From positions 1 through 26,709 of IMG/VR virus record IMGVR_UViG_3300033141_001498: 26,709 nucleotides of DNA; one strand, given 5' to 3'. Under the pieces are notes generated by a model. It made no database searches and was not told where the DNA came from. It was given only the letters and a program-made list of their open reading frames with translations. Positions 1-25,342 of this stretch are shown here, piece after piece (the first letter of the stretch is position 1; every line of letters starts with the position of its first letter). A program made the translations under genes and the position numbers. The DNA is from a virus.

Positions 1-405
1 TTTGAAACGGCAGAAGATTTAGCTCGGGAGAAGAAGGCTATAGAAAAGTTCGTAAGCCTATTTAAAGGTAGCTATAAAAAACTTGGAGACAATGACATTG
101 ATTATCGTGTGTATGATTCTAAAAAAAATCTCATCTCTTATGTTGAGGTAAAGGGCAGGATGGCTACAATAAAAGAAGCTTTCCCTTTATGTGTCGCCCT
201 ACAAAAACTACATAAACTTTCAAGTAAAAGATTAAACCCTGTTCTTATATGGGCTTGTTTGGACGGGCTCGTGTACACTAAAATAAATGAAGCTGAGGGT
301 AAGGTTAAGTGGGGTGGAAGAAACCCACGAGCAGGATCGTCCAATGACCAAGAGCTTATGGTGTATTACCAACACCAAAGGTGTTTTAAGTATTTGAAAT
401 ACTAG
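1..405 (+). CDS. Partial protein with PD-(D/E)XK nuclease-like signature (5' end outside window)
   Basis: The frame is open from the first base of the window to the TAG at 403-405, giving 134 visible residues, so the gene starts upstream and is truncated by the window. An internal Met at base 109 is probably not the start, because the residues before it read as normal protein. Counting from the first codon, D34 (in DIDYRVYD) is followed 15 residues later by E49-V-K51 in YVEVKGR. This D-x(n)-ExK arrangement, flanked by beta-strand-like sequence, is the core of PD-(D/E)XK nucleases, and the helix before it contains E15. This would suggest a metal-dependent phage endonuclease, but motif evidence alone is modest. 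It is the only plus-strand gene here and converges on the structural operon, so it probably belongs to another transcription unit. Confidence 0.6.
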   Translation, partial: FETAEDLAREKKAIEKFVSLFKGSYKKLGDNDIDYRVYDSKKNLISYVEVKGRMATIKEAFPLCVALQKLHKLSSKRLNPVLIWACLDGLVYTKINEAEGKVKWGGRNPRAGSSNDQELMVYYQHQRCFKYLKY

Positions 406-561: not shown

Positions 562-3500
562 TTAATAGTGATACTTCCGGTTATAATTATAAGGGGTCTT
601 TATGCTGTCCCATCTTTGTTGCGCCTCTCTTGTTCTCGGTCCTGTTATTTGATACGGAGACCAATTTAATATTCTTAATATTATTTCTCCTTCATCCATT
701 GTTGGGTCCTCAATTATTGCTTGAAAGTTTCTCTTCCATGCCACTGCTGATGGTGCGGGAATACCACTAAGCATAATTGTTTTAGATATAAAGTCTACTA
801 GTTGCTTCTCATATTTCTCAGGATTTTTTTCTTTGTCTATTTTTCTTAGATCACGAAGTTCTTTCCCTATTTCAATAGCTATTGAGATTAGACCAACTTG
901 TTTGGTTGTTCCTGTCCAAGGCTTTTCGGTAAGGGCATCTCCTATTAGATTAAAAAGGTCTCCCAATATAAAGAATGCATTAAGGTTTCCTATTACAGCT
1001 ACACGAGCAAAGTCTTTCCAATCATCATCTCTCCATGGTCTCATTAGACCCGGAAGACCTGCTGTTATGTATTGAAAAAATGCAGGAAGTATTACATGAT
1101 AAGTTATTAAGGTTCTCATGTTCTCTACAAAGCTACCTTGAGCTCCTTCTCCTTTATATATACTATGAATATTCTTAATAGCAGTTAACTCTTTCCTTAA
1201 ATATTGTTTAGGTGATGTCATAAACATATTGAGCCCACGAGTAACAGCATCGGATGTTTGGAAGTAGTCTTTCTCTTGTATGTCTCCTGATTGCTGTGTA
1301 GATTTAGTATCGTCTTCAAACTTTCTAATAGCATAATCAATGGCATCTTGACCTGTTAATCCCTTAGCTTGTGCCTCTGCTTTATGAAATTTGTAGTTTG
1401 CCATTCCTCCAAAAATAATTGCACCATAATCCCCTAGCCTTACGCCTAGCATAACCGCCCATATTAAATCATTTAACACACCCTTCAACGCTGAACTCTC
1501 AAACCTAGTGTCTTCTGCCATCGCAGCCATTGTTTCTAAGCTCTTTACAATACTTTGTCTGTATCGGTGTTGAATATAAACAGAGTTATCATTTATCTCT
1601 TTAGATAAACGATTCCATTGAGGACTAAATGGCAAAACAAAATTCCTCATCCAATTTACATACCCTATGGCATTCGCATAAGCTATAAAAGATACTAACT
1701 GCTTAAACATAACAGTAGGCCTTATAGAAAGTGATCCTACTGTCATGGCTGTGTTAAATTTGTTCAGCTTAACATCCCAATCTCCTTGTCTTACCCCACG
1801 ATTAGCAATCTTTTGAATCATGTCTTTAATCATGTCATAAGTTTCCTGTCCGTGCAATGTTACAATAGCATCTCTCACATCTTTATTTGTAAACATTTTG
1901 TTTATATCTCTTACGGGCCTACCCATAGCCGCAAAGTATTCCATGTTGTTTACATAAGAGAATAAAGAATTTATACTGCTTGTAATAAGAATAGGAGATT
2001 TAGAATCAGTTCTCTCATTAATAGAGGCTGCAAATACTGAAGCATTTGGATTCACTTTTACCGCTATTAGGTCTACAAAGTCATCACTCGGCATAAAGTT
2101 ATCCCTATACAGTCTACCGCCATATCTTTGAACTTGAGGCATATCAGTTCTATATAGATCTCTGTATGCTATATTGTAGTGTTCATAGAGTTGTGGAAAT
2201 AAAACATCCATTTGCCAATCTGAAAACTCTTTTAGTTTGGGGTCAATCTTTTTGTTTACCTCCTCCATTACGAAGTCTGTGTGTCTTCCAAACTTAGCTT
2301 TAAAAGCGGGGTGAGTTTCTTTGTTTTTATAATGCATATATAGATACGCAAGTTCCGCTTGGCTTAGCTGTTCCACTTGGTATTTAGAAGAAAACTCCAT
2401 TAATTCATCTTTTGTTATTTCCCCATCCTCAAATTTCTTTTCAGCCTCTTGAACTTTAGCTTCACCGTTCTTTGTTTTATATAAGAAGACTGATTTTTTA
2501 TTTAAGTCTCTTACAATAGTTATATATCTTTTCTTGCCTAATGTTTTTATACTTCTATCTTTACCCCACAACCTTATCATTTCAGCTTCTATCATATCGT
2601 CCACCATCATACTTCTCTTCTTAAACTCTCTTGTGCCTCTGTTAACTAAATCAACAACCAACTCTTTAGCAACTCCCCCAAATAATTCTCCCGGCATTTT
2701 ATCTATTATTGCCATTAAACCATGGAGGTCTTGAGCTGAAGCTACAGGTGAAGTTAAAAATGTTATAATATGATCTTTAGTTTTCTCCCACGTAGTTTTC
2801 GCAACCACCTTTTTTGTTATCCTTTTTATACCCTTCTTATTCTTTAAAACTTTAATAGCATCGGCTACTGCTTTCCTTCCTTTCTTTGTAGATAGGTCTA
2901 CCTTTTTTCCTAAGATAGCTGTAAGTATTGTTTCTCTTTGTCGGTTATATCTTTCGTGCGTTTCTTGAGCTTCTAGTTTTTGTCGTGTCCCCTCAACTAA
3001 ACCTAACTCTTGTAGCAACTGTAGTGCTGTACTTAATGAGGAGACATTATCAATTTGATTCTCTCTCATAGTATATGACAACACTATATTTTCAGCCGCT
3101 CTAATAGCTAACATCTCATCTATTTGTGAGGGAGATAGGGATTCCTGATTGGCCTCTAGCTCTGCTCTTAGCTTCATTAGCTTGTCAACCTCAGCCAATA
3201 TAGATTTAATACTAGCACTAGGATCAACTGCGCTTATCCATTTTTTTATTTTAGACGATAAGGGTTTGTTCTTTTTAGATAAATCTTTTAGTGCGGTATC
3301 TATATCTCTGTTAAGAGTGCGGCTATTAATGGTGTTAACCTCTTCAATAATCTCTTCGGTTATTGTATCAAGGTCTGAATGTTTTATCTTATCTATCTTG
3401 GCTAATAATTCTTCTACCCTCTTGTTTGTTTTTAAAACATCTAAGGGTAATGCCTTCCTTATAAAAGTTTTTAGCTTTCGTTTAAAGTCTTGTAAGCTTC

Positions 3501-6500
3501 TGTAAGAATCTAAATCTCTTATTAAATGTCTCGCTTCTTTAATTCTGTCAGTCATTTCTCTTGGTGTACCTAATTCATGCTGTGCCCTTACTGCTGTTTC
3601 CATTTCAGTTTTCTGTGAGTCAGTAGCATTTTTATACGCCTGAGAGCTTCTAAGCTTCTCTAACGCCTGTTCTATAGTTAAGACAGGTTTACCCTTCTTC
3701 TCTCGGGTTAAGCTCTTAAACAGCCTATTACCTGCTACAGGGCCTATATTAAGAGAACCAAACACACTAGGTAGGTTCGTTAACTCCTTGTCAGAAATCT
3801 TAAGAATCTTTTTAATTTCCTCTCGTTGTTTCTTTTGGATTTGTTTTAGGGTTGGCTTTTTAATTCCTGAATCTATAAGCTGTTGCTTTATATTAGTATG
3901 ACCAATACCTTTCTTAACAAGAACACTAATTAAATCTTTAGTAGACACATTGCCTAACTTGCCTGCTCTAACATAATCAAAGAGTGTAGCTTCAGTCCCA
4001 ACCTTTTGGTCTCTGAATCTCCACTCCTGAGGTTTAGTCGTTTCAACATCCTTCTGTTGATCTCTACTTAGTGGACCTCTTCTTTTTCGTTTTACATCTT
4101 CCCATTCTTGTTTCGCCCAATCTGCTATTTCAGAACCATAATACACTCGGTTGTTTAAAGCTCCCTCGTCTACTAACACCACTTCACCATCTGCTCTCAC
4201 TCCCCAATTTCTAGTAGCAAGAAAATCATTCCATAAAAGGTTATAGTTTAAAAAGTCGGTTAAACCTTTTGCTTCCATGTAATCCTGAACAATAGGAGCA
4301 ACATTACCAAACCTGTCTACGCCATTCTCTCGATATGCCGACTTTAGTCCTTTTAAATACTTATTTACAACCTTATCATTTCGTGGTACTTTTTCTACTA
4401 CTATATAATCTAAACCCTGTTCAAATAGTTCAGCAATTTTACCATCCAACATATTAAAATCTCCAAACCCTACACTTAAATTTTGTTCTAAGCCTCGTGG
4501 ACTTGTGGCTACTTTAATAACTTTGTTTTTATCAGTGGGGTGTTGGTATACTATTCTCCCTGTCCCCCCTTTAGATATAACCTCTAGCTCGTCTAAGTTA
4601 AAGTCTTGGGCTGCTACTGTTTGTTGTTGGTTTCTGTTTTGACGTTTTAAGTATTGTTTAAAGTTTAGTTTTTTAGGAGACATCTTGTATAATATTTGAG
4701 TGTCTTCTTTTACTATGGCTTCTCCTTGAGAAAACTTAGTTGATAATGTGTTTAGTAAATCTATGACAGCCTCTTCGTTTCTAGTTAACTGATTTATAAA
4801 ATCCATACTAAACCCTAACTTTTGCCCTAACTCTTTCAACCATTGTAAGATAATGTTTGTTTCAGGTTTACTTAATGTTTTATAATTAGCGGCCAACACT
4901 CCAATAAGTTGTGCTAATTGTTCTTCACTTTGTATGTCAACGTCATATTCCTGAGCAAATTGGGTAAGTAGACTTTTTAGTTTGCTTCCTTTCCCTAACG
5001 ATTTATCTACCGCCTTTAACATTTTATTGGTAATAATAGTAGTTTCTTTATCTGTCTTTATAGAGTTTAGTAATACCGCATGAAACGCTTCATGGGCTAC
5101 TGTTGTGTTGTCGGCTTTAGTAAGGTTAATATGTATGGTGTTAGTGTTATCATCAAACCTTCCTTTAGTTTGAATTGGTGCGTGTTTAGAATATGTTTTC
5201 TCATCAGCGTGCACCACCACCTTAACATCAGGAAAGGCTGTTTTTAACGCTTTAACAATATTTTCAGCTTGAGTAACAATCTGTTTTTTTGCGGTAGATA
5301 AATTTTTAACCTGTTCTTTATCAGTTACTTGGAATCTCTCTGTAACATCTTCAGTTGTTTCTGTTCCTGATAAATCTAATCCTAATAAGTCAGCAACCTC
5401 TTTCTCTTTGGCGGTAAGCTGAGTTTGCTCTACCCCCTTGTATTGTTCTTTCAATTCTCTTATACCCTGATCCACCAACTCCTGTTGTTTTGTTTTAATT
5501 TGTTCAGAAGTAGGAGTATCTATACCGTCTTTTTTTAATTGCTCTATAGCATACTCTTCAGATACCTCTACTCTTTCTTTAACTTCATTACCTTGTTCGT
5601 CTGTAAAAGTGGCTTCAAAAATCTGTGTGCCCTTTGCTCCTTCATTTATTATTCTTATCTCGTCCTTTATTTCTTTAATCCTAATCTTAGAAGTCTCTGT
5701 TCCCTCACCCTTCTCTTTTAAATCTTGAAGCTCCATTTCTAATCTAACAAGTTTCTCTCTTGCTGCTTTAGGTAGGTTTTCAGTTATAGGATCAAGGGAT
5801 TTAGCTATTACCCCCTCTTTAAATGCTGTAGCTTTTTTCTGTTCCACAAACCTTGCCATCGCATTGTCATTCTTTATATCAATAGTAGCACCGGCAATAG
5901 CATCTTGAGATGTCTCAGGATCGTTTATCCATTTGTTAAAGTCTGCTGCCGTCCACTCCTGTCCATTAACTTTATACTTAGGGGAGTAAGCCATACCCAC
6001 CCCATAAGTAATAGGAGCATTCCATAATGCACCAATACCTTCAAGGTATATATCCTCAGCTATTCTAGGTTGACCGGCCATTGTCATTCCTGCCACCTCA
6101 CCCAAAGAACCACCCAACACTTCTATTCCTGACACAGTTGTCATAGAAGCCATCTTTCCTCGCATTCCTGCACCCATCATATTGGCTACTCGAGGAGCAA
6201 CCTTTATTCCTAAGGCCATAGCAAAAGCTTCTACCGCTCCAATAGCTATACCTCTCCCTAGAGATCGGTTAACAAACCTTTTCATTTTATATTCATTATT
6301 AAAAAGACGTTGTACATTCTCTACAGTCATGTTGTCTATACCTCCTAACTCTTCTTCAAGTAGCTGACCAAAAGTTAAGGTTGTTTCTAAGGTCGCTGTC
6401 ATAGAAAGCATAGCTGTAGGGATAGACCAAGGTAAAGCGGCTATATTAGTTATTCCTACTCCGGGCGCACTACCAAATGCACCAACCCCTGTAGCAACAC

Positions 6501-7983
6501 CGTGAACTGCACTAAAAGCAGCAGCTCCTCTTTTCATAATATAAGGATTGGTTAACATAGCAAAAGATGTAGCCATTAAGTCAGGAAGACTTTCAGGGTC
6601 AGCAGCAGTAGCTCTTACCATCGCTAACAATCCGGGAGATCCTTCCTCTCTGTATTTGTTCATACGAGTATACCAATTCTGCATCGTCTCCGAAGGGCCA
6701 TACTGTTGAGCTTCTTTCATAGCCTCCCTCATATTGTTTATGTCATCCTCGCTTACCTCATTAGCCTTACCATAAAATACTTGAGTCCACACTTTCCCTA
6801 GCTCATCTACAGAACCACTCTGCCCACGACCAAGTGCTGCGGCGTGCCACATTCTACCAAAAAAATTTGAACCCGAACCTACACCCGCAAAGTCTGCTAA
6901 AAATTTATCACCGTAATTTTTTTTATCCGAGTAATCAGTAAAAGCTAGCATCTCGTTTCGTTCCTTCTCCATATCCATCACCTTAAGTCTGTCTTCTTCT
7001 AGCTTCTTCCATCTCGCATCTAGGTCTTCGGCTTGATTTTTAATTTCTTGTCTCTGTGCTAAAAACTCTTTATATTCTACCGGATTTTGTTTTATTTTGT
7101 AAGGATTCCAATAATGCCTAGGGTCTTGTCTAAACGTATTACCCTCTTCTTGTAATGCTAGTGACTCCTTTATTAAAGCATCCTCTGCATTCCTAAATGA
7201 AAACACCATGTTGTCAAGATCCTTGGCACTCACAGCAACATTAGGATTGTATTCTTCCTGTGGCCTATTGGTTTCATAAAAATCTTGTATGGTTTGTTGG
7301 TCGGTTGCCGTATGCAGATGTTTCTGCATTATCGGACTTATAGGAAGACCGAAACGTGAAGGCTTCATTCTTTTTTTGGTTTGAACCACAAGCTCATTTT
7401 TGTTGGGGGCTATCATTTTTACTTCGACCCCTTCCTGTTCAAAAGAAAAACCGGAGTCTTTAAAAAGTCTATCTAACAACTCAACAGATTCTTTAGGGTT
7501 AGTGGTATTTAATATCCTTCCTACTTCATCTATAGCCTCTGAATATCTATCTGTGGGAGGCTTAAGTCTATCATGTAGTTTTATTCCTTCCTGCTGTTGA
7601 ATCTCATAAGCTCCTAGCTGATTAGTACCCTCTTCTTCTTCTACACCATATTCATCAGGATTAATACCGAATACAGATTCATACCTAACCTTCCATTCTT
7701 GCGTATCATCTGTAGGGGTTTGTTGGGTAACAACTTCTTCAGTAACCTCAGTCTCTTGAGAGTCCGAGAAACCATCCGCCAAAGGTAAATCCATACCTTC
7801 GTCTTTTTTTTTTACACCACCCATAACGGCAGTGCTCCATGTTTCATAATCATCTTCTATACCTAAATGATTATGCAAACCTTGAAGATATTCTTCATTA
7901 TCTTTTATAGCATTTATCCATGTTTCATAGTCATCTTCTATACCTAAATAACCATGTAGTCCTTGTAGATATTCCTCGTTCAT
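562..7983 (-). CDS. Giant polyvalent virion protein (2473 aa): zincin metallopeptidase, kinase-like and LPD-type regions
   Basis: A single uninterrupted 2473-codon gene, the largest in the window. Visible parts in order: a duplicated 27-aa N-terminal motif (residues 2-55); Gly/Ala-rich hydrophobic stretches around 475-680; a putative zinc metallopeptidase with HEAFH at 964-968 and candidate third ligands E1020/E1021; a protein-kinase-like module around 1130-1290 (GGTG 1139-1142, K1157, D1253 to N1259, DEG 1272-1274); a long charged helical/coiled-coil region around 1440-1700; and a C-terminal region with GDYGA (D2185) and TQQSG (2229-2233), typical of large polyvalent protein-associated (LPD) regions of phage virion proteins. 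Hydrophobic segments follow near the C-terminus. Position after the tail genes and size suggest an internal protein ejected with the DNA, as T7 gp16 is, with enzymatic domains acting in the new host; that role is inferred. It starts 5 nt after the preceding stop. Confidence 0.88.
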   Translation of the reverse strand: MNEEYLQGLHGYLGIEDDYETWINAIKDNEEYLQGLHNHLGIEDDYETWSTAVMGGVKKKDEGMDLPLADGFSDSQETEVTEEVVTQQTPTDDTQEWKVRYESVFGINPDEYGVEEEEGTNQLGAYEIQQQEGIKLHDRLKPPTDRYSEAIDEVGRILNTTNPKESVELLDRLFKDSGFSFEQEGVEVKMIAPNKNELVVQTKKRMKPSRFGLPISPIMQKHLHTATDQQTIQDFYETNRPQEEYNPNVAVSAKDLDNMVFSFRNAEDALIKESLALQEEGNTFRQDPRHYWNPYKIKQNPVEYKEFLAQRQEIKNQAEDLDARWKKLEEDRLKVMDMEKERNEMLAFTDYSDKKNYGDKFLADFAGVGSGSNFFGRMWHAAALGRGQSGSVDELGKVWTQVFYGKANEVSEDDINNMREAMKEAQQYGPSETMQNWYTRMNKYREEGSPGLLAMVRATAADPESLPDLMATSFAMLTNPYIMKRGAAAFSAVHGVATGVGAFGSAPGVGITNIAALPWSIPTAMLSMTATLETTLTFGQLLEEELGGIDNMTVENVQRLFNNEYKMKRFVNRSLGRGIAIGAVEAFAMALGIKVAPRVANMMGAGMRGKMASMTTVSGIEVLGGSLGEVAGMTMAGQPRIAEDIYLEGIGALWNAPITYGVGMAYSPKYKVNGQEWTAADFNKWINDPETSQDAIAGATIDIKNDNAMARFVEQKKATAFKEGVIAKSLDPITENLPKAAREKLVRLEMELQDLKEKGEGTETSKIRIKEIKDEIRIINEGAKGTQIFEATFTDEQGNEVKERVEVSEEYAIEQLKKDGIDTPTSEQIKTKQQELVDQGIRELKEQYKGVEQTQLTAKEKEVADLLGLDLSGTETTEDVTERFQVTDKEQVKNLSTAKKQIVTQAENIVKALKTAFPDVKVVVHADEKTYSKHAPIQTKGRFDDNTNTIHINLTKADNTTVAHEAFHAVLLNSIKTDKETTIITNKMLKAVDKSLGKGSKLKSLLTQFAQEYDVDIQSEEQLAQLIGVLAANYKTLSKPETNIILQWLKELGQKLGFSMDFINQLTRNEEAVIDLLNTLSTKFSQGEAIVKEDTQILYKMSPKKLNFKQYLKRQNRNQQQTVAAQDFNLDELEVISKGGTGRIVYQHPTDKNKVIKVATSPRGLEQNLSVGFGDFNMLDGKIAELFEQGLDYIVVEKVPRNDKVVNKYLKGLKSAYRENGVDRFGNVAPIVQDYMEAKGLTDFLNYNLLWNDFLATRNWGVRADGEVVLVDEGALNNRVYYGSEIADWAKQEWEDVKRKRRGPLSRDQQKDVETTKPQEWRFRDQKVGTEATLFDYVRAGKLGNVSTKDLISVLVKKGIGHTNIKQQLIDSGIKKPTLKQIQKKQREEIKKILKISDKELTNLPSVFGSLNIGPVAGNRLFKSLTREKKGKPVLTIEQALEKLRSSQAYKNATDSQKTEMETAVRAQHELGTPREMTDRIKEARHLIRDLDSYRSLQDFKRKLKTFIRKALPLDVLKTNKRVEELLAKIDKIKHSDLDTITEEIIEEVNTINSRTLNRDIDTALKDLSKKNKPLSSKIKKWISAVDPSASIKSILAEVDKLMKLRAELEANQESLSPSQIDEMLAIRAAENIVLSYTMRENQIDNVSSLSTALQLLQELGLVEGTRQKLEAQETHERYNRQRETILTAILGKKVDLSTKKGRKAVADAIKVLKNKKGIKRITKKVVAKTTWEKTKDHIITFLTSPVASAQDLHGLMAIIDKMPGELFGGVAKELVVDLVNRGTREFKKRSMMVDDMIEAEMIRLWGKDRSIKTLGKKRYITIVRDLNKKSVFLYKTKNGEAKVQEAEKKFEDGEITKDELMEFSSKYQVEQLSQAELAYLYMHYKNKETHPAFKAKFGRHTDFVMEEVNKKIDPKLKEFSDWQMDVLFPQLYEHYNIAYRDLYRTDMPQVQRYGGRLYRDNFMPSDDFVDLIAVKVNPNASVFAASINERTDSKSPILITSSINSLFSYVNNMEYFAAMGRPVRDINKMFTNKDVRDAIVTLHGQETYDMIKDMIQKIANRGVRQGDWDVKLNKFNTAMTVGSLSIRPTVMFKQLVSFIAYANAIGYVNWMRNFVLPFSPQWNRLSKEINDNSVYIQHRYRQSIVKSLETMAAMAEDTRFESSALKGVLNDLIWAVMLGVRLGDYGAIIFGGMANYKFHKAEAQAKGLTGQDAIDYAIRKFEDDTKSTQQSGDIQEKDYFQTSDAVTRGLNMFMTSPKQYLRKELTAIKNIHSIYKGEGAQGSFVENMRTLITYHVILPAFFQYITAGLPGLMRPWRDDDWKDFARVAVIGNLNAFFILGDLFNLIGDALTEKPWTGTTKQVGLISIAIEIGKELRDLRKIDKEKNPEKYEKQLVDFISKTIMLSGIPAPSAVAWKRNFQAIIEDPTMDEGEIILRILNWSPYQITGPRTREAQQRWDSIKTPYNYNRKYHY
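7819..7980 (-). repeat. Two tandem 27-codon repeats at the N-terminus of the giant protein
   Basis: Residues 2-28 and 29-55 of the 2473-aa protein are near-copies: NEEYLQGLHGYLGIEDDYET and NEEYLQGLHNHLGIEDDYET, each followed by W and about six variable residues. The DNA copies (7900-7980 and 7819-7899) are clearly related but differ at many wobble positions. The duplication is therefore not recent and the amino-acid sequence seems to be under selection. A short helical peptide-like unit such as this could be a docking or packaging tag; that is inference. Confidence 0.85.
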
Positions 7984-10966: not shown

Positions 10967-11371
10967 TTAATTTATTCTTTTAATCAACTCTGTTGATGTT
11001 GTTCCTTTGCCATATCCTGACTTGCTAAAATATTTTATCAGAGCAGGATGATTATTATTAGTGAACACATATTTGTGTCCTTGATTCTTAGCTATTGTTT
11101 CTAATGTAGATACCAATAAATCTAAGCCCTTTTTTCTTTTTTTATACCTATTGTTTGATATCACCCAAGTTATCCAAGCTACTTTAGAATTGGTATTATA
11201 TAAAAAAGCTGCGCACACAGGCGTAGTGTCGTCATATACTATGGCTCCCCCCTCCCCATCTTGCGGTAAAAAATCTCTCTCCGGAGGCATTTCCCATCCC
11301 CAATCTTTCCACCATCCAACAAGTGTATTATCATAATCCTCGTATGATAACGGTCTAATAGTTAATTTCAT
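10967..11371 (-). CDS. GNAT-type N-acetyltransferase
   Basis: A 134-aa protein whose layout fits the GCN5-related N-acetyltransferase fold. It has an N-terminal IRPLSYEDYD strand-helix, a central beta pair (AIVYDDTTPVCAAFLY, then AWITWVISN), an acetyl-CoA-loop/helix equivalent in NNRYKKRKKGLDLLVSTLE, and a C-terminal NNNHPALIKYFSKSGYGKG segment typical of the last strands. It would transfer an acetyl group from acetyl-CoA to an unknown amine or protein N-terminus. Small GNATs embedded among phage structural genes are common, and their substrate is generally unknown. It has its own TATCTTTG box 5 nt before the ATG and ends 2 nt before the next gene. Fold assignment is fairly secure; substrate cannot be said. 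Confidence 0.82.
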   Translation of the reverse strand: MKLTIRPLSYEDYDNTLVGWWKDWGWEMPPERDFLPQDGEGGAIVYDDTTPVCAAFLYNTNSKVAWITWVISNNRYKKRKKGLDLLVSTLETIAKNQGHKYVFTNNNHPALIKYFSKSGYGKGTTSTELIKRIN

Positions 11372-23186: not shown

Positions 23187-23540
23187 TTAAGGGGGACAGC
23201 AAAACTGAGTAACGGTCACCGACCTAATACTAATAGGTTGTCCTATTGGATTGAAACAATTAGGTAATTGTTTAGGCATAGAAATAACTTGACTCTCTCC
23301 ACTTTGCAGTCTTTCTATTTGTTTAGTCAGAAAAGTTATCACACTATAATCTCCCGCAGCTACTGCATCCGACAAGGTTAGTTCTGCCCGAACATTACCG
23401 TGGTAAACTATCTCTACAGCACTAACACCATTTGGAATAATAGATACAATATTATCAGCACCTACAATTATTTTTGCCGACTTTGAACCTACTCCTGAAG
23501 CTGCATAAGTAGAAGTATTAACAATTAAATATTTAGACAT
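23187..23540 (-). CDS. Small array protein 6 (117 aa), beta-rich, related to the five genes before it
   Basis: It starts MSKYLIVNTS, matching the M-x-K-(Y/F)-(L/F) start shared by the small genes of this cluster. This is followed by strand-like segments (IIVGADNIVSIIP, VEIVYHGNVRAELTLSDA) and a helix (ITFLTKQIERLQSG). It has an extra C-terminal tail, IRSVTVTQFCCPP, with a Cys-Cys pair not seen in the others. It is the most divergent member together with the 125-aa gene, whose stop lies 1 nt upstream. Likely a minor virion component such as a capsid decoration protein, judged only from position between capsid and connector genes. Confidence 0.7.
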   Translation of the reverse strand: MSKYLIVNTSTYAASGVGSKSAKIIVGADNIVSIIPNGVSAVEIVYHGNVRAELTLSDAVAAGDYSVITFLTKQIERLQSGESQVISMPKQLPNCFNPIGQPISIRSVTVTQFCCPP

Positions 23541-23541
23541 A

Positions 23542-23919
23542 TCAAGTTATCGTTATAGTTGCTACTGAAACATTAGCCCCTCCAATATCTACAAAGGGAA
23601 TTGTTGAGGGGTATTGTCCTGTTGCAGGATCTTTAGGGCCACCGATAGTATTCATTTCAGCCACTGTCTCCCAATCTTCCCCTGCAGTTGTTACCCGGTT
23701 ATGGGCACTTGCAAATTTTTCTATAAACCAATTAGCCCATTTATATTCTTCCGCTATTACTACAGCTCTATTTAAAGTGATAGTAGCTTTTTTTCCATTG
23801 GAATAATAAATAAACAAAGTGGTTAGAGTATTTCTCGTGTCCTGCATAATACCTACTATACCATCTACTGATAAGTATGTAGGATATCCTCCTGTTCCTA
23901 TTATAAAATATCTTCCCAT
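23542..23919 (-). CDS. Small array protein 5 (125 aa)
   Basis: It starts MGRYFIIGTGGYPTYLSVDG, in line with the array family's N-terminal strand followed by a VDG turn. ATITLNRAVVIAEEYKWANW then corresponds to the shared strand-helix part. The C-terminal PFVDIGGANVSVATITIT is strand-like and ends in Thr. It is slightly longer than the others. It is the first gene after an intrinsic terminator and has its own TATCTTTG box 5 nt before the ATG, so it can be expressed independently of the four genes upstream. Function unknown; a capsid-surface or cement role is inferred from gene order. Confidence 0.72.
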   Translation of the reverse strand: MGRYFIIGTGGYPTYLSVDGIVGIMQDTRNTLTTLFIYYSNGKKATITLNRAVVIAEEYKWANWFIEKFASAHNRVTTAGEDWETVAEMNTIGGPKDPATGQYPSTIPFVDIGGANVSVATITIT

Positions 23920-23924
23920 AACTA

Positions 23925-23932
23925 CAAAGATA
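23925..23932 (-). promoter_or_regulatory. TATCTTTG box abutting a terminator, before the 125-aa gene
   Basis: An exact TAnnTTTG match ending 5 nt (TAGTT) before the ATG at 23917-23919. It begins right after the U-tract of the upstream terminator, so one transcription unit ends and another starts within about 35 bp. This tight junction supports a real promoter better than the sequence match alone. Confidence 0.6.
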
Positions 23933-23959
23933 ATAAAAAAAGGGGACTAATGTCCCCTT
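23933..23959 (-). terminator. Intrinsic terminator after the 106-aa gene
   Basis: Read on the minus strand, AAGGGGAC-ATTA-GTCCCCTT forms a perfect 8-bp GC-rich stem with a four-base loop, followed directly by a run of seven or more T. It lies 24 nt downstream of the 106-aa gene's stop at 23984 and separates that gene from the next promoter box. Confidence 0.88.
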
Positions 23960-23983
23960 CTTCACCTAAGTAGCGATATAACA

Positions 23984-24304
23984 CTAAGCTACCACAATAC
24001 CTGTAATAACTGCCGGTGCCCCTGCAGCATCAACTAAACCTGATAAACTAACGTCATATTTTGGGTTAGTCCAAGATGTTTGAAGAGCTGCAATTATAGA
24101 GTCTTGAACACGGTCTCTTGCGCTGTCGTCAGAAGCTGCAAATGCTGCACCAAAAGTAATTGTTGCCACATCTGTTGCTGCCGCTGAACCCGCATAAGTT
24201 ACTGTAACCTCAGTGGTACTAGCTTGTTCAACGATTATAACACCGTCTACAGCTAACAACTGTGGTGTTGCCCCGTCAATCGGGAATGATAAATACTTTT
24301 TCAT
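23984..24304 (-). CDS. Small array protein 4 (106 aa), likely well expressed virion component
   Basis: It starts MKKYLSFPIDG, then LLAVDGVIIVEQAS, EVTVTYAG, ATITFGAAF, a helix (DRVQDSIIAALQTSW) and the shared Y-D-V strand. This is the layout of the 99-, 102- and 119-aa members. It is rich in Ala, Thr and Val with no catalytic motif. It has its own TATCTTTG box with a 41-nt leader and its own strong terminator, making it a stand-alone transcription unit. That suggests it is made in larger amounts than its relatives, as expected for a decoration or cement protein; this is inference. Confidence 0.75.
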   Translation of the reverse strand: MKKYLSFPIDGATPQLLAVDGVIIVEQASTTEVTVTYAGSAAATDVATITFGAAFAASDDSARDRVQDSIIAALQTSWTNPKYDVSLSGLVDAAGAPAVITGIVVA

Positions 24305-24345
24305 AATAAAAAAAATTGAAAAATTTTGTGAGACTATTCTCGCTA

Positions 24346-24353
24346 CAAAGATA
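24346..24353 (-). promoter_or_regulatory. TATCTTTG box with a leader, before the 106-aa gene
   Basis: An exact TAnnTTTG match on the minus strand, 41 nt upstream of the ATG at 24302-24304, unlike the other boxes, which sit 4-5 nt from their start codon. The leader is very A/T-rich (a run of eight T before ATTATG), typical of Bacteroidota translation starts without a Shine-Dalgarno sequence. Confidence 0.6.
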
Positions 24354-24367
24354 ATAAAATATATTTA

Positions 24368-24667
24368 CTATGCAGAGACTATATCTCCGATAGCATACTT
24401 AGAAGGAATAGGGACATCAATAAAAACCTCAGTATAGGAAGTTTGCTCTGCTCTTATAATAGCATCGTTAATTATGTCTACCAAAGCTCCGTCAAAATCA
24501 ATACCATTAACCCCATCTCTTTGAATGTTCCACTCTTCGCTTGCTGTTACATAAGGAACAGAACTTGCGTGAATAGTATTCACGTCAAACAATACCACTA
24601 GGTCACATGCATTTACATTTAATACCCTGTCTCCATTCGCTGTTTTAAATATTAAATACTTAACCAT
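24368..24667 (-). CDS. Small array protein 3 (99 aa)
   Basis: It starts MVKYLIFKTANGDRVLNVNA, then strand-like DLVVLFDVN, a helix LVDIINDAIIRAEQTS and YTEVFIDVPIP, aligning by eye with the 102-aa protein (helix, then YTQSYVDVEFP). It has no enzyme motif. It is separated by 4 nt from the 102-aa gene and by a promoter-containing gap from the 106-aa gene. Likely a capsid-associated small protein by position; function unproven. Confidence 0.74.
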   Translation of the reverse strand: MVKYLIFKTANGDRVLNVNACDLVVLFDVNTIHASSVPYVTASEEWNIQRDGVNGIDFDGALVDIINDAIIRAEQTSYTEVFIDVPIPSKYAIGDIVSA

Positions 24668-24671
24668 CTTA

Positions 24672-24980
24672 TTAATCTACTAAGGTTACTGAATCTATTA
24701 TTACACCCGGAAACTCTACATCCACATACGACTGAGTATATCCTGCTTGAAAGAGTCTTTCTATTGCATTAGTTATGACATTGCGAGTAGCCTGCTCATC
24801 AGCACTAAGACTCCCCCCTGAAGTCACAATAAGTACTTTGGAACTAGCTGCCGAATTGTTCTCTGAAAATAATAAATACATTCCGGCGGGAGAAATAATC
24901 TCCATTATGCCTGACAAACTCTCAGCTTTTACCAACATCTTGCCTGTAGTAGTTGTATTAAATCTTAAAAACTTACTCAT
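24672..24980 (-). CDS. Small array protein 2 (102 aa)
   Basis: It starts MSKFLRFNTTTTGKMLVKAE, then LSGIMEIISPAGMYLLFSEN, a strand (SKVLIVTSG), a helix (QATRNVITNAIERLFQAG) and YTQSYVDVEFPG. This is the clearest example of the shared array architecture: N-terminal strand K-(Y/F)-L-x-F, three strands, one amphipathic helix, and a final Y-x-D-V strand. It follows the 119-aa gene after 2 nt, so the two are co-transcribed. Virion role inferred from position. Confidence 0.75.
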   Translation of the reverse strand: MSKFLRFNTTTTGKMLVKAESLSGIMEIISPAGMYLLFSENNSAASSKVLIVTSGGSLSADEQATRNVITNAIERLFQAGYTQSYVDVEFPGVIIDSVTLVD

Positions 24981-24982
24981 AG

Positions 24983-25342
24983 CTATGTGGCTCTTTGTAC
25001 TTCGGTTAATACTAGTGTGAATACTACCGGTCCTATCTTGACCCTAATACCATCTTCATTACCTACATCTGCATACACATCGTTGTTTCCTTCTGCACAT
25101 AGCTCTGTGATAATGTCCGCAACATAAGACACTAACTCGTCAGCCGCACCTCCTAGGTCAGGAGTAAATGTTAAAAGTATTTTAAAATCTTTAGAGTCTC
25201 CATAATAAAATACTAAATCAAAATCTCCTCCCCCCGTATTATCAGAAGTCATCATTGTCATTTTACTTACGTTAATAAGCACATGTTGCGATGAAGCTGC
25301 CGGAGCAAGTGATGGGGAATAAAACCTTAAATATTTATTCAT
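24983..25342 (-). CDS. Small array protein 1 (119 aa)
   Basis: First gene of the array. It starts MNKYLRFYSPSLAPAASSQH, then VLINVSKMTMMTSD, a strand pair (FDLVFYYGDS, KILLTFTPD), a helix (DELVSYVADIITELCAEG) and DVYADVGNE, matching the family's helix and Y-x-D-V strand. A further strand tail (VVFTLVLTEVQRAT) is added. It has a TATCTTTG box 5 nt before the ATG and lies 23 nt after the 249-aa gene. Function unknown; capsid-surface location is inferred. Confidence 0.75.
   Translation of the reverse strand: MNKYLRFYSPSLAPAASSQHVLINVSKMTMMTSDNTGGGDFDLVFYYGDSKDFKILLTFTPDLGGAADELVSYVADIITELCAEGNNDVYADVGNEDGIRVKIGPVVFTLVLTEVQRAT

What the first reader, a model, noticed from the sequence alone, without database searches (positions are those of the whole stretch)
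4114..4596. Protein-kinase-like module inside a giant phage virion protein
Within about 160 residues there is a Gly-rich loop (GGTG 1139-1142 in ISKGGTGRIVYQ), a Lys 15 residues after it (VIKVA, K1157), a hinge-like YIVVEKV, a catalytic-loop-like NDFLATRNWG (D1253, N1259) and a DFG-like VDEG (D1272) 19 residues later. Order and spacing match a protein-kinase fold, although the D-to-N distance is one residue longer than the classic HRDxxxxN. An ejected kinase or pseudokinase could modify host proteins at the moment of infection.
Basis: partly seen in the sequence, partly recalled or inferred. Interest (0 to 1): 0.75.

Follow-up and report, generated by a model that had tools for sequence, protein, structure and literature searches.

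The report
Kinase-fold cassette in giant phage protein
A marine flavobacterial phage carries, inside a 2,473-residue protein encoded among its virion genes, a small protein-kinase-like domain whose key catalytic residues are kept in every relative found, so it probably phosphorylates something in the bacterium at infection; this is a new, divergent version of a kind of phage protein that had already been proposed.

Summary
All cited motifs lie on the minus strand in one 2,473-aa ORF (562-7983), at the stated residues. Taken alone, the motif order is weak evidence: a loose version occurs in about 13% of shuffled copies. Three independent tests settle the fold. (1) A 16-sequence AlphaFold2 model of residues 1105-1310 is confident (pLDDT 84.9, pTM 0.81), and its Foldseek matches are kinase-fold proteins: NleH, Rio2, APH(2''), OspG and phage kinases. 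(2) K1157, D1253, N1259 and D1272 are invariant in 13 other phage loci, down to 33% identity and across three protein contexts. (3) Codons show purifying selection (omega 0.06-0.44). The 'one residue too long' D-to-N spacing is fixed in the family. The domain is truncated: conservation ends about 30 residues after the DEG motif. No canonical alpha-C Glu is conserved. The host ORF is the terminal giant protein of a flavophage virion module, next to an HExxH zincin-like domain, and resembles a 'polyvalent protein'. Iyer et al. 2017 already proposed injected truncated kinases in Bacteroidetes phages, but the markers of their clade are absent here. Catalysis, virion location, injection and substrates are inferred. 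Verdict: a real, divergent kinase cassette of a known kind.

The parts
562..7983 (-). Giant ORF, 2,473 aa, last gene of the virion-structural module; carries the kinase cassette
   Evidence: syntenic with MW202828.1 giant ORF and phi38:1 gp101 'structural protein'
4075..4602 (-). Kinase-fold domain, aa 1128-1303
   Evidence: AF2 model pLDDT 84.9, pTM 0.81; Foldseek to kinases; conserved block shared between otherwise dissimilar giant proteins
4558..4569 (-). Gly-rich loop GGTG, aa 1139-1142 (G1140 and R1143 invariant)
4513..4515 (-). K1157, beta-3 lysine (VIKVA), invariant in 16/16
4387..4407 (-). beta-5/hinge YIVVEKV, aa 1193-1199 (E1197 invariant)
4201..4230 (-). Catalytic loop NDFLATRNWG, aa 1252-1261; D1253 and N1259 invariant, spacing six in the close family
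4162..4170 (-). DFG-equivalent DEG, aa 1272-1274; D1272 and G1274 invariant
4684..5346 (-). Zincin-like metallopeptidase candidate domain, aa 880-1100
   Evidence: HExxH plus downstream EEQLA acidic motif conserved; shared with elemo structural protein; fold match to zincins only weak
5080..5094 (-). HEAFH (HExxH) motif, aa 964-968
646..2367 (-). C-terminal scaffold, aa 1873-2446, shared with Tenacibaculum phage Gundel giant structural protein (22% identity)
5581..6876 (-). N-terminal half scaffold, aa 370-801, matching phrog_32588
   Evidence: E 9.3e-36

Best explanation
Residues about 1128-1303 form an atypical minimal protein-kinase-fold domain: a full ATP-binding N-lobe plus the catalytic loop and DFG-equivalent, without most of the C-lobe. 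It is carried as a cassette in the central part of a giant polyvalent-type virion protein. The most likely sequence of events is: the giant protein is packaged, enters the cell with the DNA, may be cut into units by its adjacent zincin-like protease domain, and the kinase unit then phosphorylates host (or early phage) proteins to favour take-over. Shown here by computation: the fold, the retained catalytic residues, purifying selection, position in the virion module, and presence in at least three protein contexts. Inferred: phosphotransfer activity, packaging and ejection in this phage, protease processing, and protein substrates.
For: Model m750d9d42ceaf: pLDDT 84.9, pTM 0.81, with a five-strand/alpha-C N-lobe, K1157 in beta-3 and D1272 after beta-8. 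The significant PDB fold matches are all kinase-fold proteins: NleH1/2, Rio2, APH(2'') (E 1.7e-4 to 9.6e-4). Viral matches include annotated phage kinases. K1157, D1253, N1259 and D1272 are invariant in all 16 aligned sequences, 14 close (33-87% identity) and 2 remote (21-23%). dN/dS is 0.06-0.44. Two pieces match phrog_4301 in the right order, the second only weakly (E 0.175), and all 16 members match that family. The YrbL Pfam family is sub-threshold over the N-lobe (E 6.5e-5). Neighbouring genes are head/virion structural families, the gene order matches MW202828.1 and phi38:1, and giant relatives are annotated 'structural protein'. The kinase is the only segment that aligns between the window protein and L021-type giants; the records of that type that reach the gene (L022, L027, L028) carry a head protein 84% identical to the window's.
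Against: No activity, proteomics or phenotype data exist for this phage. No significant sequence match to a solved structure (best E 0.078). The canonical alpha-C Glu is not conserved, and the HRD His is Trp/Phe. TM-scores are low (0.33-0.41 against PDB, query-normalised). The fold family also includes small-molecule phosphotransferases. Cultured relatives' giant proteins gave no match to the domain, so it is not essential to the scaffold.
Confidence: 0.6

Rival explanations
1. Pseudokinase or nucleotide-binding scaffold: the fold is kept for ATP sensing or protein binding within the giant protein, without phosphotransfer.
For: No conserved alpha-C Glu, HRD His replaced by Trp/Phe, atypical six-residue D-to-N spacing, truncated C-lobe.
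Against: All four core catalytic residues are invariant to 33% identity and beyond; minimal bacterial effector kinases with a reduced C-lobe are the top structural match.
Confidence: 0.15
2. Kinase-fold phosphotransferase acting on a small molecule, sugar or nucleotide rather than on protein (APH-like in the broad sense).
For: APH(2'') enzymes are among the significant Foldseek matches.
Against: The helical C-lobe that forms the APH substrate pocket (own knowledge) is absent; the top hits are the truncated protein kinases NleH1/2.
Confidence: 0.12
3. A kinase that acts on phage virion or early phage proteins (assembly, self-processing of the giant protein, or ejection control) rather than on host targets.
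For: It sits within a virion-module protein next to a protease-like domain. A paper notes acetylation and phosphorylation of marine phage virion proteins (PMC13288928, introduction).
Against: Related giant proteins gave no match to the kinase, so scaffold assembly does not need it.
Confidence: 0.1
4. Chance resemblance: no kinase domain.
For: The loose motif order occurs in 13% of shuffled proteins; no Pfam family passes its cut-off.
Against: Structure prediction, Foldseek, invariant residues, phrog_4301.
Confidence: 0.03

Closest known systems
Kinase domains of polyvalent proteins (Iyer et al. 2017, PMC5512222)
   Same: Truncated kinase fold with intact active-site residues, inside giant multidomain proteins of Bacteroidetes phages alongside zincin-like peptidases; proposed to be delivered and to phosphorylate host proteins
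   Different: The clade markers the paper lists (Glu before strand 2, Gln in the last N-lobe strand, insert between His and Asp) are not seen here; instead invariant G-G-x-x-R loop, hinge VVExV and D-x5-N-W-G
phrog_4301 (phage family, function unknown)
   Same: All 16 aligned members match; N-lobe and catalytic-loop stretches match in order
   Different: 225-position family of unknown function; the window's score is modest (E 2.2e-6)
Minimal effector kinases NleH1/NleH2 and OspG (fold comparison only)
   Same: Best structural matches; short kinase domains (159-169 residues)
   Different: 15-18% identity, no sequence match; unrelated biology and delivery route
YrbL (PF10707)
   Same: N-lobe motif match over aa 1130-1161 (E 6.5e-5)
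   Different: Below the curated cut-off; only the first ~33 profile positions align
T7 protein kinase (gp0.7)
   Same: Phage kinase said to phosphorylate host translation factors (cited in PMC5512222)
   Different: An early-expressed protein (own knowledge), not a domain of a virion protein; not compared here

Membership tests
Protein-kinase-like fold superfamily | beta-rich N-lobe with alpha-C, hinge, catalytic loop, DFG-type strand turn | tested here: met
   AF2 model and Foldseek
Protein-kinase-like fold superfamily | beta-3 Lys, catalytic Asp, Asn, DFG-type Asp conserved | tested here: met
   K1157, D1253, N1259, D1272 invariant in 16/16
Protein-kinase-like fold superfamily | alpha-C Glu pairing with the beta-3 Lys | tested here: not met
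   No invariant Glu in the predicted alpha-C (aa 1162-1170); N1168 is invariant instead
Canonical Ser/Thr/Tyr protein kinases | HRDxxxxN with D-to-N of five, and complete C-lobe (alpha-F to alpha-I) | tested here: not met
   W/F-x-D, spacing six; conservation ends about 30 residues after DEG
Polyvalent-protein kinase clade (Iyer 2017) | Loss of C-terminal subdomain with intact active-site residues | tested here: met
Polyvalent-protein kinase clade (Iyer 2017) | Glu N-terminal to strand 2 | tested here: not met
   GGT[G/T]R or GGSVR precedes strand 2 in all 14 of A5
Polyvalent-protein kinase clade (Iyer 2017) | Conserved Gln in last N-lobe strand | tested here: not met
   Last strand is [YF][IVL]VVE, with Glu invariant; the paper's own alignment was not available
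Polyvalent-protein kinase clade (Iyer 2017) | Insert between catalytic His and Asp | tested here: inconclusive
   No equivalent His is identifiable
Polyvalent proteins | Several catalytic domains in one polypeptide, often with a zincin-like peptidase | tested here: inconclusive
   Kinase fold plus HExxH domain; the zincin fold match is weak
Polyvalent proteins | Delivered into the host with DNA | not testable with these tools
   Only synteny with virion proteins

The most novel reading that the evidence does not exclude
A previously undescribed clade of virion-carried minimal kinases in marine flavophages. The kinase stays conserved in a giant ejection protein while the rest of that protein diverges or is replaced, and related phages carry other catalytic cassettes (for example a GNAT-like one in Gundel), so the protein would be an interchangeable payload carrier acting at the first moment of infection.
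Probability: 0.4. Interest if true: 0.65.

Novelty: new variant of a known kind. Interest (0 to 1): 0.5.

Why it matters
If active and ejected, it would be a phosphorylating enzyme that acts before any phage gene is expressed, in flavophages related to cultured Cellulophaga, Flavobacterium, Tenacibaculum and Maribacter phages. It would give a concrete, testable instance of the polyvalent-protein hypothesis, which was put forward from comparative sequence analysis. It also defines a compact kinase family that sequence libraries currently leave as 'unknown function'.

Tried and rejected
Recent transfer of the kinase alone between phages: first suggested by a 98-nt identical run and 95% DNA identity in the core against L002, but fourfold-site identity of the kinase (0.71) equals that of the neighbouring head gene (0.72), so no special recent transfer is needed; it is the rest of the giant protein that is faster or replaced. 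Sequence search against solved structures: nothing significant. Relatives in cultured phages by tblastn: none. Relatives in bacterial genomes: none found in two scans, which only reach near relatives. One DNA pattern scan was wasted on an off-by-one gap and redone. Zincin fold of aa 880-1100: the model is decent but no PDB match below E 0.05, though several of the weak hits are zincins. No paper on this exact family was found in the held library.

Full report
What was checked. The finding lies on the minus strand in one ORF, 562-7983, of 2,473 aa. The motif order alone is weak: a loose version of the pattern turns up in 12.75% of shuffled copies of this protein, a strict version in 0 of 2,000. 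The case therefore had to be made from relatives and structure.

Relatives. Direct search found L002 (87% identity over the domain) and L009 (78%). A DNA pattern built on the catalytic loop and DEG motif and a profile search enlarged this to 14 close sequences, the window included, at 33-87% identity (A5) plus two remote ones (A6). Sixteen columns stay invariant in A6, among them G1140, R1143, K1157, E1197, D1253, N1259, D1272 and G1274. Given 16 invariant of 120 fully occupied columns, the chance that the four named catalytic residues all fall among them is about 2e-4. Codon comparison gives dN/dS of 0.06-0.44: the domain is under purifying selection.

Fold. AlphaFold2 on the 16-row alignment gives pLDDT 84.9 and pTM 0.81, with the order beta1-beta2-beta3(K1157)-alphaC-beta4-beta5-hinge-helix-catalytic loop-beta7-beta8-D1272. 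Foldseek against the PDB gives NleH1 (1.7e-4), NleH2, Rio2 and APH(2'') below E 0.001, then OspG and tyrosine kinases. Against viral models it gives 46 matches below 0.001, many annotated as phage protein kinases. TM-scores are low (0.33-0.53, query-normalised), which fits a truncated domain against longer targets but also limits how much the match says. Sequence-only searches are near blind to it: YrbL at E 6.5e-5, below its cut-off, phrog_4301 of unknown function in all 16 members, no significant PDB sequence. Conservation ends about 30 residues after DEG, so the alpha-F to alpha-I part of a normal C-lobe is missing; no alpha-C Glu is invariant, and the HRD His is Trp or Phe. It is an atypical minimal kinase.

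Setting. Neighbouring genes match head and virion structural families. The closest named phages are Bacteroidota podophages or their like: MW202828.1, Maribacter phage Panino, the Flavobacterium elemo phages and Cellulophaga phi38:1. The giant ORF sits at the end of the structural block, the position of phi38:1 gp101 'structural protein' and of a 3,859-aa ORF in MW202828.1. Its parts are shared piecemeal: aa 873-1094 with the elemo structural protein, aa 1873-2446 with Gundel's giant structural protein. Those cultured relatives gave no match to the kinase; Gundel's has a weak GNAT match (E 0.0018, below cut-off) and elemo's has DUF3293. Upstream of the kinase is a conserved HExxH domain whose model is fair but whose zincin assignment by fold is weak.

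How the cassette evolves. Against L009 the window protein is mostly 20-50% identical along its length but 88% at aa 1151-1250. Against L021-type giants only aa 1139-1303 aligns, although the L022, L027 and L028 records encode an 84% identical head protein. A third, 654-aa context is L030. Fourfold-site identity in the kinase equals that of the head gene (0.71 and 0.72 for L002), while the zincin-like part is far lower (0.27). So the kinase has kept pace with the core genome, and the rest of the giant protein has diverged or been exchanged.

Mechanism. The best reading is a payload domain: packaged, ejected with the DNA, perhaps freed by the neighbouring protease-like domain, and phosphorylating host or early phage proteins. 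The fold, residues, selection and genomic place are computed here; activity, ejection, processing and targets are inference, partly by analogy to the polyvalent-protein model (PMC5512222).

Novelty. Truncated kinases in Bacteroidetes phage polyvalent proteins were described in 2017. Two of the three sequence markers given for that clade are absent here and the third cannot be located, so this is filed as a new variant of a known kind, not as a member of that clade.

Noticed in passing
window 23187-25342 (-): Six consecutive small ORFs (99-125 aa) that all begin alike (MSKYLIV, MGRYFII, MKKYLSF, MVKYLIF, MSKFLRF, MNKYLRF) and are weakly alike overall (14-30% to the first): a tandem paralogue array between head and tail genes with no PHROG match.
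   Followed up: partly
window 10967-11371 (-): Stand-alone GNAT-like acetyltransferase ORF inside the virion module (Acetyltransf_1 E 0.0018, below cut-off; phrog_17252), with an ORF annotated as an acetyltransferase subunit at the same place in MW202828.1.
   Followed up: partly
window 7825-7983 (-), aa 1-53 of the giant protein: Two near-identical tandem copies of NEEYLQGLHxxLGIEDDYETW at the N-terminus of the giant protein.
   Followed up: no
L004 aa 896-966 of the Gundel giant protein; L003 aa 1323-1392 of the elemo giant protein: Other cassettes (GNAT-like, below cut-off; DUF3293) in giant structural proteins of related cultured phages.
   Followed up: partly
window 1-405 (+): Convergent ORF, 5' end cut off by the window, matching PDDEXK_14 phage endonuclease (E 6e-11).
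   Followed up: partly
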